From the NCBI RefSeq assembly GCF_000817785.2, contig NZ_JTCM02000009.1:1-33247 (forward strand): a stretch of 33,247 bases of DNA, read 5' to 3'. A program made the position numbers and the translations under genes. The notes under the pieces are model-generated. The model worked only from the letters and a program-made list of their open reading frames with translations, was not told the origin of the DNA and searched no databases. Below are positions 998-10,846 of this stretch, in pieces (the stretch's first letter is position 1; the number at the start of each line of letters is the position of its first letter). This stretch comes from Hassallia byssoidea VB512170. Lineage in GTDB: Bacteria; Cyanobacteriota; Cyanobacteriia; Cyanobacteriales; Nostocaceae.

Positions 998-1109
998 GCA
1001 ATGTTTAACTAACAGACTCCGTGCCTTTACGATTATCGCAGCTGAAGTGAGGTATTCACGTTCTACAATAAATATTTCCCCCGTTTGCCAAAATCAGCGT
1101 GAGTGAGTG

Positions 1110-2934
<1,825 letters not shown>

Positions 2935-2976
2935 TTATATTTTTGGATATTTGTAAAGAATCGGGGAGTTTAATTG

Positions 2977-4164
2977 ATGAAGATATTAGTACTAAGTTGG
3001 GAGTTTCCACCTCGCATCGTCGGAGGAATTGCGCGTCATGTGGCAGAGTTGTACCCGGAAATAGTCAAGTTAGGGCATGAAGTCCACCTGATTACGGCGG
3101 AGTTTGGTCATGCACCGATGTATGAGATAGTCGATGGAGTGCATGTGCATCGCGTGCCGGTGGCTGGTGGTCACGACTTTTTCCACTGGATAGTAAACTT
3201 AAATGACAGCATGGGGGATCACGGCGGTAAGTTGATGCTGGAAGATGGTCCGTTTGATATTATCCATGCTCATGATTGGTTAGTGGGCGATGCTGCGATC
3301 GCTCTCAAGAATACCTTTAAAGTGCCGTTAATTGCTACAGTCCACGCGACCGAATTCGGACGCTATAACGGTATTCACACTGATACTCAACATTATATTA
3401 GTGGCAAAGAAAACCTACTTGCTTTTAACGCTTGGCGGATTATCGTTTGTACCGACTACATGCGGCGAGAAGTTGAACGAGCGCTTCACAGTCCTTGGGA
3501 TAAAATCGATGTTATCTACAACGGTATTAGACCAGAAAAGAAACAACACCATCAAGATTTTCATGCCCACGATTTTCGCCGTCAATTTGCCGAAGATGGT
3601 GAAAAAATCGTTTATTACGTCGGTCGCATGACTTATGAAAAAAACGTTTCCGGATTGCTAAATGCAGCACCAAAGATACTTGCAGAAATGGGTGGTTACG
3701 TCAAGTTTGTGATTATTGGTGGTGGCAATACCGACCATCTTAAACGTCAAGCTTGGGATTTGGGAATTGCCCACAAGTGCTATTTTACCGGCTTTATGTC
3801 CGATGAATACTTAGATAAATTTCAAACTATCGCTGACTGTGCCGTTTTTCCCAGTCTCTACGAACCCTTTGGTATTGTTGCCTTAGAAAGCTTTGCCTCT
3901 CGCGTTCCCGTAGTCGTTTCTGATACAGGCGGATTTCCGGAAGTAGTGCAACACACGAAAACAGGTATTGTGACCTGGGTTAACAATCCAGATTCTCTAG
4001 CTTGGGGAATATTAGAAGTGTTGAAAAATCCAGGTTATCGGCAATGGTTAGTTGATAATGCTTATGAGGATTTAGAAAGACGCTTTAGCTGGTCTAAAAT
4101 AGGCAAGCAAACAGAAGATGTATATCAGCGGACAGTCAAAGAGCGATCGCACGTTGTATGGTAA
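2977..4164 (+). CDS. Glycosyltransferase family 4/5-like, starch-synthase-like
   Basis: This 395-aa protein is a GT-B fold retaining glycosyltransferase. The N-terminus MKILVLSWEFPPRIVGG resembles the start of glycogen/starch synthases. The C-terminal donor domain carries GRMTYEKN (R217/K222) and the EX7E motif E296-PFGIVAL-E304. It would transfer a sugar from a nucleotide donor in the cytosol, possibly in alpha-glucan or exopolysaccharide synthesis; the acceptor cannot be read from sequence. A TTG at 2974 precedes the ATG at 2977. The ATG is preferred because GGGGAG lies 8 nt upstream. The stop codon TAA (4162-4164) is also the start of the first TAATGGG unit of the following repeat. Family is sure, substrate is not. 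Confidence 0.9.
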   Translation: MKILVLSWEFPPRIVGGIARHVAELYPEIVKLGHEVHLITAEFGHAPMYEIVDGVHVHRVPVAGGHDFFHWIVNLNDSMGDHGGKLMLEDGPFDIIHAHDWLVGDAAIALKNTFKVPLIATVHATEFGRYNGIHTDTQHYISGKENLLAFNAWRIIVCTDYMRREVERALHSPWDKIDVIYNGIRPEKKQHHQDFHAHDFRRQFAEDGEKIVYYVGRMTYEKNVSGLLNAAPKILAEMGGYVKFVIIGGGNTDHLKRQAWDLGIAHKCYFTGFMSDEYLDKFQTIADCAVFPSLYEPFGIVALESFASRVPVVVSDTGGFPEVVQHTKTGIVTWVNNPDSLAWGILEVLKNPGYRQWLVDNAYEDLERRFSWSKIGKQTEDVYQRTVKERSHVVW

Positions 4165-5390: not shown

Positions 5391-5426
5391 TCTCCTCTGC
5401 GTCCTCCGCGCCTCTGCGGTTCGTTT
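5391..5426. repeat. Dispersed repeat CTCTGCG...GCGGTTCGTT, copy 1
   Basis: This short GC-rich repeat has internal CTCTGCG/CCTCCGCG units and ends GCGGTTCGTT. A related copy lies at 8836-8873 (CTTGGCG units, same ending). It fills part of the spacer between the convergent cyanophycinase-like and cysteine desulfurase genes and ends on the first base of the desulfurase stop codon (5426-5428, minus strand). Confidence 0.6.
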
Positions 5427-6592
5427 CACACAAACGTCGCCTGCTGACGCAAACTTTGCACCGTAGAAATAAAATATTCCGCTACCTTGTCAATCTCCTC
5501 TTGCGTATTAAACCTGCCAATTCCAAACCGCACCGATGCATAAGCTAACTGTTCCGAATGTCCCAGCGCTGTGAGAACATGAGAAGGTGCAGTTGTAACT
5601 GAAGAACAAGCAGATCCAGAAGAAACAGCCATTACAGGTTGCAATCCTAGCAGCAAAGCAGCACCATCTACCCCTTCAACGCTGATATTTAAATTTCCCG
5701 CTAGTCGTTGGGTAGGATGTCCGTTGAGGTGAATTCCTGGCAATTGCGAAAGTTGTTCCCACAATCTTTCTCTTAATTGTGTCAAGCGATCGCATTCTAT
5801 CTTTTGTTCTTCCAAAGCGATTTCTACAGCTTTGCCAAATCCGACAATTTGTGGTGTATATAGTGTACCAGAACGCATTCCCCGTTCATGTCCGCCACCA
5901 TGTTGTTGCGCTGCGAGTTGTACTCTCGGATTGCGACGACGCACATATATAGCACCGATACCCTTGGGACCGTATACTTTGTGTGCAGTTAGCGACATCA
6001 AGTCAATTTTCATCGCTTGCACATCAAGGGGAATTTTGGCGATCGCTTGTGCTGCATCGGTGTGAAAAATAATTTCCTGACTGCGACATAATTCGCCAAT
6101 TTCTGCTAACGGTTGCAACACCCCAATTTCATTATTAGCAGCCATCACCGAAACTAAAATTGTATCAGGGCGTAAAGCTTTTTCTAACTGATTTAAATTA
6201 ATTATCCCGTCTTTTTCAACTGGCAGAATTGTCACTTCAAAACCAAGACTTTTTAGATAATTGCAAGGGTCAATAACTGCGCTATGTTCGGTTGCAACAG
6301 TAATAATATGTTGCCCTTTTTGATAATAAGCTTCAGCCACACCTTTAATCGCTAAATTATTCGCTTCTGTCGCACCACTGGTAAAGACAATTTCTTCCGG
6401 AGTAGCATTAATTGCTTCAGCTAAAATTGACCGCGTTTGTTTAACAGCCGCTTCTGCTTCCCAACCATAAACATGACTAATACTAGAGGGATTTCCAAAG
6501 TGTTGAGTGAAGTAAGGTAGCATTGCTGCTAGTACCCTTTCATCTACAGGAGTGGTAGCGTGACAATCGAGATATATAGGGCGATCGGACAT
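5426..6592 (-). CDS. Cysteine desulfurase (NifS/IscS type)
   Basis: This 388-aa PLP enzyme converts L-cysteine to alanine and leaves a persulfide on its active-site cysteine for Fe-S cluster or other sulfur-carrier assembly. Visible features are the N-terminal IYLDCHATTPVD, the His that stacks on PLP (TEHSAV, H103), the Schiff-base lysine in LTAHKVYGPKG (K205), RSGTLYTPQ (240-248), and the catalytic cysteine in SSGSACSS (C329). Length and motifs match the group I (IscS/NifS) class. The gene begins 5 nt after the stop of the nuclease-fold gene upstream, so the two are probably co-transcribed. No nitrogenase or isc/suf genes are near, so a housekeeping role is more likely than a nif-specific one. 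An Nfu-type scaffold is encoded about 16 kb away in this window. Confidence 0.95.
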   Translation of the reverse strand: MSDRPIYLDCHATTPVDERVLAAMLPYFTQHFGNPSSISHVYGWEAEAAVKQTRSILAEAINATPEEIVFTSGATEANNLAIKGVAEAYYQKGQHIITVATEHSAVIDPCNYLKSLGFEVTILPVEKDGIINLNQLEKALRPDTILVSVMAANNEIGVLQPLAEIGELCRSQEIIFHTDAAQAIAKIPLDVQAMKIDLMSLTAHKVYGPKGIGAIYVRRRNPRVQLAAQQHGGGHERGMRSGTLYTPQIVGFGKAVEIALEEQKIECDRLTQLRERLWEQLSQLPGIHLNGHPTQRLAGNLNISVEGVDGAALLLGLQPVMAVSSGSACSSVTTAPSHVLTALGHSEQLAYASVRFGIGRFNTQEEIDKVAEYFISTVQSLRQQATFV

Positions 6593-7328: not shown

Positions 7329-7883
7329 ATGACTCTCACCATCCAGGATTTAGAAAGACTGCAAGAAAAGCTCAAAGAAGACCATTGCGACTATCAACTA
7401 GAACTACAATCGGGAAACATTGTCGTTATGGGTCCATCAGATATTGAATCGAGTGAAATAAAGGCTGAGTTTATCAGACTGCTGGGTAACTGGGTTAAGC
7501 CGCGTAAACTAGGACGTATATTTGATTCTAGTGGTGGGTTTATTATGCCTAACACTGAATTACGCGCACCTGATGTTTCCTTTGTGTCAGCCCAAAGATT
7601 GAAACGCACAATCCGCGACTTTGCTCAACTAGTTCCAGATTTAGTAGTAGAAATTAAATCAAAAACAGACCGCATCCGTCCCTTGGAAGATAAAATTAAA
7701 CTATTTTTGCAATTAGGGGCGCGAGTTGGGATATTAATTAATCCAGATGAATTGACTTTAACAATTTATCGCTTAAATAGTGAGGGTGAAGTGTTGGCGG
7801 GTGAAGATAAGCTAACAATTCCAGAGTTATTTCCTGGTTGGGAAATTTCGATTTCTCAAATATGGCCCCCAGTATTTGAATGA
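7329..7883 (+). CDS. Uma2 family endonuclease (DUF820)
   Basis: This 184-aa Uma2-family protein has its first acidic residue in RAPDVSFVS (D82) and then PDLVVEIKSKTDR, which gives E108-x-K110, a complete D...ExK nuclease motif. The ending GARVGILINPDELTLTIYR and ELFPGWEISI are typical of the family. Start is the ATG at 7329, 80 bp from the divergent HsdR-N-like gene. It is only distantly similar to the first Uma2 copy, so these are old paralogues rather than a recent duplication. Nuclease activity is inferred from the motif only. Confidence 0.9.
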   Translation: MTLTIQDLERLQEKLKEDHCDYQLELQSGNIVVMGPSDIESSEIKAEFIRLLGNWVKPRKLGRIFDSSGGFIMPNTELRAPDVSFVSAQRLKRTIRDFAQLVPDLVVEIKSKTDRIRPLEDKIKLFLQLGARVGILINPDELTLTIYRLNSEGEVLAGEDKLTIPELFPGWEISISQIWPPVFE

Positions 7884-7979: not shown

Positions 7980-8831
7980 ATGACTAATAACATGCAGCGC
8001 GACTTCACCAACCGCGAAGAGTTGGTAGCTTACCTCCGCGAACAATTCCCAGACGCAGCACAACGAGATAATCATATCAGCGAAATTGTCGGCGGACGCA
8101 AAGCCGCCGAGAAAGTGTTGCAAAAAGTAGATTCTGCACGCTACGCAAAAACACGTAACTTTTTCACAGGTGCAGTAACGCGACTTTCGCCTTATATTCG
8201 TTATGGCGTTCTCAGTCTGCGAGAAATTCGAGATTATGTCGTTGAGCGCGTACAAAACCCAGACGAAACAACTAAACTAATTAACGAACTAGGCTGGCGC
8301 GACTACTGGCAGCGTTTATACGCCAAACTAGGCGATAATATCTGGCAAGACCAAGAAGAATATAAAACAGGCTATACCCCAAAAGACTACGCACCTGAAT
8401 TACCAGAAGACATCGCACAAGGCACCACAGACAGAGTTTGCATCGACAGCTTCAGCCGTGACTTACGAGAAACAGGCTACTTGCACAACCATGCACGCAT
8501 GTGGATGGCAGCTTATATTGTCCACTGGCGGCGTATTCGTTGGCAAACCGGCGCAAAGTGGTTTTTAGAGCATTTATTAGATGGCGATCCTGCGAGCAAT
8601 AATATGTCATGGCAATGGGTAGCCAGCACCTTTAGTCACAAAGCTTATTTTTTCAACCGCGAAAATTTAGAACGTTACACCGAAGGCATTTATTGCAAAA
8701 AATGTCCCCTTTACGGTCATTGTGACTTTGAAGGTAGTTATGAAGAAATAGAACAGAAGCTTTTTCCCAAAGCCGAATTTAACAAACAAGCTAACAGCCA
8801 AAGTTGGCAAAAAGGCAAAAAACGCCGTTAA
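7980..8831 (+). CDS. Stand-alone FAD-binding domain of a photolyase/cryptochrome
   Basis: This 283-aa protein is the helical FAD-binding half of the photolyase/cryptochrome family without the N-terminal antenna domain. Seen are TRLSPYIRYGVLS (67-79, FAD phosphate binding), DLRETGYLHNHARM (161-174) and DGDPASNNMSWQWVAST (201-217). W188 and W211 are spaced 23 apart, as are the E. coli photolyase electron-transfer tryptophans W359 and W382, and N207 matches Asn378. Four cysteines (C154, C239, C242, C248) resemble the spacing of the cluster ligands of Fe-S bacterial photolyases. The missing N-terminal domain is encoded by the next gene, 55 nt downstream. DNA repair or blue-light sensing are both possible. 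Family is firm; activity is open. Confidence 0.85.
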   Translation: MTNNMQRDFTNREELVAYLREQFPDAAQRDNHISEIVGGRKAAEKVLQKVDSARYAKTRNFFTGAVTRLSPYIRYGVLSLREIRDYVVERVQNPDETTKLINELGWRDYWQRLYAKLGDNIWQDQEEYKTGYTPKDYAPELPEDIAQGTTDRVCIDSFSRDLRETGYLHNHARMWMAAYIVHWRRIRWQTGAKWFLEHLLDGDPASNNMSWQWVASTFSHKAYFFNRENLERYTEGIYCKKCPLYGHCDFEGSYEEIEQKLFPKAEFNKQANSQSWQKGKKRR

Positions 8832-8835
8832 AAAT

Positions 8836-8873
8836 CTTGGCGTCCTTGGCGCCCTTGGCGGTTCGTTATCCAA
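8836..8873. repeat. Dispersed repeat CTTGGCG...GCGGTTCGTT, copy 2
   Basis: This is the counterpart of the 5391-5426 repeat, with three CTTGGCG-type units and the shared ending GCGGTTCGTT. It starts 5 nt after the stop codon of the FAD-domain gene (8829-8831) and fills most of the 55-nt spacer to the second photolyase-half gene, within one probable transcript. Confidence 0.6.
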
Positions 8874-8886
8874 AATCTAAAAACCA

Positions 8887-9303
8887 ATGACTAAACCAAT
8901 TATTTGGGTACATGGAGACTGCCTCAGTCCCCAAAACCCCGCACTACAACAATACCCCGACGCCCCCGCAATTTGGGTTTGGGATGATGCTTTAATTAAA
9001 GAATGGCAACTAAGCCTCAAACGCCTTACCTTTATTTACGAATGCTTATTAGAATTACCCGTTGTCATTCGTCGTGGTGATGTGGTGCAAGAAGTTTTAG
9101 CTTTTGCCAAAGAGAATAATACTAACTTAGTTGTCACAGCAGAAAGTGTTAGTCCGCGTTTTGATATGATATGTGACGAAATTGAAAAAAATGTGGACTT
9201 GGAAATTTTTGAAGTAGAACCATTTTTTGAATACGACGGCTATATCGACTTGAAGCGCTTCTCTCGTTATTGGAAAGTAGCTGAAAAATATGTTTTTGAT
9301 TAA
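8887..9303 (+). CDS. Stand-alone photolyase N-terminal (alpha/beta antenna) domain
   Basis: The 138-aa product aligns by eye with the N-terminal Rossmann-like domain of photolyases. PIIWVHGDCLSPQNPAL (4-20) stands where family members have WFRRDLR...DNPAL. RLTFIYECLLEL (46-57) and IRRGDVVQEVLAFAKENN (61-78) match the usual arrangement of an L-rich helix followed by a GD-containing turn and a helix. The end DLKRFSRYWK looks like the start of the interdomain linker. In normal photolyases this domain precedes the FAD domain in one chain; here it is a separate gene downstream of it. It would bind an antenna chromophore or only support the fold. The tract before it is repeat-derived. A complex between the two products is an inference. 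Confidence 0.75.
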   Translation: MTKPIIWVHGDCLSPQNPALQQYPDAPAIWVWDDALIKEWQLSLKRLTFIYECLLELPVVIRRGDVVQEVLAFAKENNTNLVVTAESVSPRFDMICDEIEKNVDLEIFEVEPFFEYDGYIDLKRFSRYWKVAEKYVFD

Positions 9304-10267: not shown

Positions 10268-10846
10268 ATGATTATTGCAGAACGCTACTACTCACCGGAA
10301 GAATACCTAGAAATAGAGGTAAAATCTGAAGAACGGCACGAATATATTAATGGTCAAATTATCCCAATGACAGGTGGAACACCGAATCATAACCAAATTG
10401 CTGGCAATTTCTATGCAGCGCTCAATTTTGCTCTGAAACGTCAACCATTACGGGTTTTTGTGACAGACCAAAGATTATGGATTCCTCAAAAGCAAATTAA
10501 TACTTATCCGGATGTGATGGTTGTTGCAGGTGAATTGCAATTTCAAGAAGGAAGAAAAGACACTTTGACAAATCCGATAATGATTGCTGAGGTACTTTCA
10601 AAATCTACCAAAAGCTATGACCGGGATGAAAAATTTGCGGCTTATCGAACAATTCCCAGCTTTCAAGAATATCTGCTAATTGACCAGTATACAATGCACG
10701 TTGAACAATACAGCAAAACAGATAACAATCGCTGGATATTTACTGAATATGAAGATGCTGATGTAACTATATCCTTAGCTTCTGTTTCCTTTGAAATTTC
10801 CCTGGCAGATATTTACGATAAAGTGGACTTCGACACTCAAGATTAA
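10268..10846 (+). CDS. Uma2 family endonuclease (DUF820)
   Basis: This 192-aa Uma2 protein shows the family N-terminus YSPEEYLEIE...RHEYINGQIIPMTGG, the acidic residue in TYPDVMVV (D82), the EVLSKST motif (E108) and SFQEYLLIDQ (131-140). This is the most common Uma2 subtype in cyanobacteria. It lies 29 nt after the AraC gene on the same strand. A 7-bp inverted repeat (CAAGATT, 10838-10844, with AATCTTG, 10849-10855) overlaps its stop codon; it lacks a T-run, so it is at most a weak terminator. Confidence 0.92.
   Translation: MIIAERYYSPEEYLEIEVKSEERHEYINGQIIPMTGGTPNHNQIAGNFYAALNFALKRQPLRVFVTDQRLWIPQKQINTYPDVMVVAGELQFQEGRKDTLTNPIMIAEVLSKSTKSYDRDEKFAAYRTIPSFQEYLLIDQYTMHVEQYSKTDNNRWIFTEYEDADVTISLASVSFEISLADIYDKVDFDTQD

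What the first reader, a model, noticed from the sequence alone, without database searches (positions are those of the whole stretch)
7980..9303. Photolyase/cryptochrome split into two genes in reversed domain order
The FAD-binding half (7980-8831) and a complete antenna-type N-terminal domain (8887-9303) are separate genes on the same strand, with the C-terminal half first. Normal family members are a single chain with the N-terminal domain first. Both halves keep family motifs and look undamaged, so this is not simple gene decay. It may be a two-subunit photolyase, or a short FAD-only enzyme with a separate accessory domain. An AraC regulator follows 41 nt later.
Basis: partly seen in the sequence, partly recalled or inferred. 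Interest (0 to 1): 0.72.

Follow-up and report, generated by a model that had tools for sequence, protein, structure and literature searches.

The report
Photolyase made as two separate proteins
A cyanobacterial light-driven DNA-repair enzyme is encoded as two separate proteins instead of one; the arrangement was already known, but the two genes are nearly always kept or lost together even when they sit far apart, which suggests that they work as partners.

Summary
ORF 7980-8831 is the FAD/DNA-binding half of a photolyase (PF03441, 80 bits). ORF 8887-9303 is a free-standing antenna domain: weak for PF00875 on its own (17 bits, below cut-off), but 81 of 81 relatives match it and its model's 50 listed PDB hits are all photolyases or cryptochromes.

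Not new in kind: this is the phr4/phr5 pair (Haney 2022, PMC9426592; "heterodimeric photolyase" suggested in 2012, PMC3441193). That work left frameshift fusion versus two subunits open. 

Evidence here favours two subunits. Of 291 cyanobacterial genomes, 58 have both genes, none the antenna gene alone, 1 the FAD gene alone. In 18 of the 58 they are over 0.4 Mb apart or on different contigs. In Nostocaceae, of four genomes that lack the FAD gene but hold antenna sequence, three hold only a ruin. Unlinked antenna genes stay under strong purifying selection. In three Deinococcus plasmids the domains are fused, FAD first.

The active site keeps CPD-contact residues, favouring a CPD over a (6-4) enzyme. 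AraC is not a conserved partner. Binding and chemistry are untested.

The parts
7980..8831 (+). phr4-type gene: photolyase FAD/DNA-binding half, 283 aa, with four conserved cysteines (C154, C239, C242, C248)
   Evidence: PF03441 80.3 bits; aligns with class I photolyases of the PDB over residues 53-218; all four cysteines invariant in the 44 aligned relatives; spacing 85/3/6 equals that given for RS9916 Phr4
8832..8886 (.). 55-nt spacer; the two ORFs are in different frames; it holds three CTTGGCG words; no terminator-like site
   Evidence: terminator scan 0 found
8887..9303 (+). phr5-type gene: stand-alone photolyase antenna (alpha/beta) domain, 138 aa

Best explanation
The two genes encode the two subunits of one photolyase of the phr4/phr5 type. 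The 283-aa subunit binds FAD (and probably a 4Fe-4S cluster) and the damaged DNA; the 138-aa subunit is the antenna domain made as a separate chain. It docks on the FAD subunit, where it helps stability, light harvesting or both, as the N-terminal domain does in ordinary photolyases. Shown here: homology of both halves, conservation, co-occurrence, co-loss, and natural FAD-first fusions. Inferred: the physical complex, the chromophores, light-driven repair, and that the substrate is a CPD rather than a (6-4) product.
For: Homology. Same 291-genome request twice: both genes in 58, antenna only 0, FAD half only 1, neither 232; loosening the FAD limit to 1e-30 in 116 genomes added nothing below G026. 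In 193 Nostocaceae-family genomes: both 180, neither 8, FAD only 0, antenna only 5. Those five: three ruins without a FAD gene (G301, G338, G425), one contig break (G371: FAD residues 1-99 at a contig end, antenna gene at another contig's start), one intact antenna gene without a FAD gene (G315). 18 of 58 are over 0.4 Mb apart (10) or on different contigs (8), so in those at least no frameshift can join them; within 5 kb the FAD gene is first in 40 of 40. Of 37 close relatives without the whole FAD gene on the fetched locus, 35 genomes have it elsewhere. Linkage changed at least 10 times on the antenna-gene tree, yet omega is 0.074 (248 pairs, apart) and 0.084 (327 pairs, adjacent). Fusions, FAD first: 3 of 4 Deinococcus plasmids, the fourth split with a 4-nt overlap, and G264. 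CPD-contact residues 5 of 5 identical (E103, W106, N170, M174, W213; their role in E. coli is recalled). FO synthase family CofG over its cut-off in the host genome, so 8-HDF may be available.
Against: No complex was modelled or measured; the FAD-half model was poor (pLDDT 46.7). G315 has an intact antenna gene and no FAD gene found (a 310-contig MAG). The PF00875 score of the window protein alone is below cut-off. Of 13 FAD contacts listed by Haney et al., 8 are identical and 5 changed in the window protein; the third Trp of the triad is not conserved in the alignment. G079 and QL22 depart at CPD-contact sites. In Haney et al. only phr4 was interrupted, not phr5, and in E. coli the phr4/phr5 protection after UV-C was not light-dependent.
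Confidence: 0.8

Rival explanations
1. The FAD half works alone as a short photolyase-like enzyme, and the antenna-fold protein has its own job, for instance as a blue-light sensor.
For: Short photolyase-like proteins exist; in many Nostocaceae the genes are unlinked; 46 of 81 antenna proteins also touch the Usp profile; G315 has the antenna gene alone.
Against: Co-occurrence 58/58 and 180/180 of FAD-pair genomes; ruin of the antenna gene in 3 of 4 genomes without the FAD gene; FAD-first fusions in a second phylum.
Confidence: 0.12
2. The two ORFs give one chain by programmed frameshifting, as Haney et al. considered for marine Synechococcus.
For: Adjacent pairs always FAD first; exact spacing in marine Synechococcus and fused phr6.
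Against: In the window a stop, a 55-nt spacer and a different frame lie between them; in 10 genomes they lie over 0.4 Mb apart on one contig. Not excluded for marine Synechococcus.
Confidence: 0.03
3. A (6-4) photolyase, as Haney et al. inferred from the Fe-S cysteines.
For: Four cysteines as in the FeS-BCP group; phr4 mutant sensitive to UV-C but not to UV-B at the doses used.
Against: CPD-contact residues kept 5 of 5; the nearest relatives by their tree, Phr7/SPL, act on CPDs in single-stranded DNA; the host's Fe-S photolyase group of (6-4) enzymes is a different branch (passages).
Confidence: 0.3

Closest known systems
phr4/phr5 of marine Synechococcus and Nostoc punctiforme (Haney et al. 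2022, PMC9426592)
   Same: FAD half first, photolyase domain second, two ORFs; four cysteines with spacing 85/3/6; FAD domain about the same length
   Different: Window spacer is 55 nt, not the fixed short junction; in Nostocaceae the genes are often unlinked, which I did not see stated in the sections read
phr6 of two Cyanobium strains; Deinococcus FAD-first proteins
   Same: Same two domains in the same reversed order
   Different: One chain, longer linker and tail
Short photolyase-like proteins (SPL, Phr7) with a C-terminal Z-domain
   Same: FAD domain first; CPD-contact residues kept in those aligned
   Different: One chain; Fe-S cysteines absent; C-terminal domain only remotely like the antenna subunit
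Class I CPD photolyase (A. nidulans 1owl, E. coli 1dnp)
   Same: Both domains homologous
   Different: One chain with the antenna domain first; no Fe-S cysteines
FeS-BCP, PhrB-type (6-4) photolyases
   Same: Four cysteines of Fe-S type
   Different: Single chain, different N-terminal domain; (6-4) activity (passages)

Membership tests
phr4/phr5 split photolyase | PF03441 FAD domain as a separate ORF upstream of a photolyase-domain ORF | tested here: met
phr4/phr5 split photolyase | Four cysteines spaced 85/3/6 | tested here: met
   (154, 239, 242, 248) against (169, 254, 257, 263)
phr4/phr5 split photolyase | Direct sequence orthology to RS9916 Phr4/Phr5 | tested here: inconclusive
   RS9916 sequences were not fetched; small-genome families f24 and f25 of the same class match both profiles
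phr4/phr5 split photolyase | UV survival phenotype | not testable with these tools
   published for phr4 of RS9916 only
CPD photolyase active site | Counterparts of E. coli E274, W277, N341, M345, W384 (numbers recalled) | tested here: met
   5 of 5 in the window protein
PF00875 antenna domain | Score over the Pfam cut-off | tested here: not met
   17.0 against 26.6 bits; fold and family evidence for
Programmed-frameshift photolyase | Overlapping or closely spaced ORFs that a single shift can join | tested here: not met
   stop codon and 55-nt spacer, different frames

The most novel reading that the evidence does not exclude
FAD-first photolyases form one old branch in which the antenna domain sits behind the FAD domain or on a separate gene: Phr4/Phr5, Phr6, the Deinococcus fusions, and also the short photolyase-like proteins, whose 'Z-domain' would be a worn antenna domain. 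Then SPLs are not antenna-less ancestors, and the antenna domain joined the FAD domain at least twice, in opposite orders, with a two-subunit enzyme as the intermediate that still lives in cyanobacteria.
Probability: 0.3. Interest if true: 0.65.

Novelty: new member of a known kind. Interest (0 to 1): 0.4.

Why it matters
Photolyases are taught as one chain. A natural two-subunit form with unlinked genes lets antenna and catalysis be studied apart, and settles in part a question left open in print (frameshift fusion or two subunits). It also bears on how the two photolyase domains first came together.

Tried and rejected
AlphaFold2 on the FAD half (44 rows) gave pLDDT 46.7 and was not used. 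The AraC gene as a partner: rejected, 6 of 80 loci. Viral origin: no relatives of either half in viral contigs; 10 phage records hold FAD-type matches of at most 31.5% identity, not followed. SPL C-terminal domain against the antenna profile: no signal with three SPLs (E 0.1), Persicobacter (0.11), weak with G026 (0.0055); with six SPLs score 37.8, E 2.9e-5, probability 74%, above 100 of 100 column shuffles (best 24.6) and the reversed profile (12.9); shuffles do not control for a shared alpha/beta pattern, and Pfam found PF00875 in none of four SPL-like proteins. One of the seven SPL-type records (Novosphingobium THN1, two pieces) and Persicobacter were left out of that profile. The FAD tree separates 25 FAD-first rows from canonical ones at 100/99, but only two long-branched canonical rows were in it, and Phr4 rows were not one clade (3 changes). 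Bifunctional photolyase operon of Synechococcus PCC 7335 (PMC9649867; outline and passages seen): a different system.

Literature: seven searches of the open PMC library. PMC9426592: abstract, sections 5, 8, 9 and part 1 of 2 of section 10 read, plus passages. PMC3441193, PMC9498864, PMC9178010: passages. Xu et al. 2021 on SPLs: not held, known only through others.

Full report
The window lies in contig C47 of a 7.5-Mb Nostocales-like genome. The first matches PF03441 well; the second matches PF00875 only weakly on its own, found nothing in the PDB by sequence up to E 10, and found nothing in NCBIfam. The genome also holds two full-length photolyase-family proteins of 485 and 516 aa open frame; the PF00875 genome search at its limit did not report the 138-aa ORF.

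That the 138-aa protein is a photolyase antenna domain rests on three results: 81 of 81 family members hit PF00875, best 1.7e-5, although 46 also touch Usp; the model, built from 81 rows, is good for residues 1-110 and weaker at 111-138; the 50 listed PDB hits are all photolyases or cryptochromes, class II first, at 12-22% identity. A profile comparison with the N-terminal domains of the host's own two photolyases scores 34.6 against at most 26.2 in 100 column shuffles.

The pair is known. Mella-Flores et al. 2012 (PMC3441193, passage) describe two neighbouring Synechococcus WH7803 genes for the two photolyase domains and suggest a heterodimeric photolyase. Haney et al. 2022 (PMC9426592) name them phr4 and phr5, report fused phr6 in two Cyanobium strains, the same gene set in Nostoc punctiforme, UV-C sensitivity of a phr4 mutant, and leave open frameshifting or two subunits.

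Co-occurrence. One phylum-wide request was run with each profile on 291 genomes: antenna (E <= 1e-5) in 58, FAD half (E <= 1e-50) in 59; both 58, FAD only 1 (G026, a 451-aa frame with its own C-terminal domain), neither 232. The Fisher value of 8e-61 ignores kinship; the 58 fall in eight family groups. Positions: 37 within 500 nt (one, G264, fused), 3 at 0.5-5 kb, 10 on one contig 0.48-4.9 Mb apart, 8 on different contigs, which in broken assemblies need not mean far apart. All 40 within 5 kb are FAD first.

In the host's family, 193 genomes: antenna 185, FAD half 180, both 180, neither 8, antenna only 5 (this sample overlaps the first). The 180 include genomes with a gene cut by a contig end or an insert (G428, G414, G429, G313). 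Of the five, G301 and G338 hold antenna pseudogenes with stops or frame breaks, G425 a 31-residue remnant, and none of the three has a FAD gene beyond ordinary photolyases; G371 is a contig break; G315 keeps an intact antenna gene without a FAD gene. G371 and G315 have the contig lengths and positions of L051 and L054, the only 2 of 37 genomes without the FAD gene.

Among the 80 nearest loci (of 225 confirmed), 44 hold the FAD gene on the fetched stretch, 39 within 700 nt. On a tree of the antenna genes linkage changed at least 10 times (40 adjacent, 35 apart, 6 unknown). Omega, by a script of my own, is 0.074 for 31 unlinked and 0.084 for 35 adjacent loci (pairs are not independent).

Outside cyanobacteria, four Deinococcus plasmids hold both: three as one FAD-first protein of 456-472 aa, one split with a 4-nt overlap. 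A fusion of two proteins that elsewhere are separate is classical evidence of joint action.

Chemistry. Against A. nidulans photolyase the window protein keeps 5 of 5 CPD-contact residues and 8 of the 13 FAD contacts listed by Haney et al.; two of the three triad tryptophans are kept. The four cysteines are kept in the pair members and fusions aligned except G223, which lacks all four at once. Cysteines alone do not make a (6-4) enzyme; I put CPD repair at about 0.65. CofG is present in the host (252.6 bits, cut-off 213; the family search rang in 11 of 14 controls, over cut-off in 3), so 8-HDF is possible; the chromophore is not known.

The AraC gene is found near 6 of 80 loci, in one by its HTH part only, and no promoter- or terminator-like excess was seen.

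Noticed in passing
L186 (G429:C3:5412500-5417300), about 1070-3310: The FAD gene of one Nostoc-group genome is interrupted by about 2.2 kb that ends in a group II intron match (RF00029, 50.5 bits) and holds a 537-aa ORF; the intron may be spliced, as both exon parts and the antenna gene look intact.
   Followed up: partly
L187 (G223:C159:24500-27000): A distant cyanobacterial pair has lost all four Fe-S-type cysteines together while keeping both genes side by side.
   Followed up: partly
L194, L195, L196, L203-L205, C-terminal 175-186 residues: The C-terminal domain of six alphaproteobacterial FAD-first (SPL-type) proteins resembles the antenna subunit by profile comparison (score 37.8 against at most 24.6 in 100 shuffles).
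   Followed up: partly
window 5426-6592 (-): An aminotransferase class V protein (PF00266) that looks like a NifS/IscS cysteine desulfurase lies 1.4 kb from the Fe-S-type FAD gene, with two ORFs between; probably chance.
   Followed up: no
window 7329-7883 (+) and 10268-10846 (+): Two Uma2-family (PF05685) genes flank the photolyase-AraC group.
   Followed up: no
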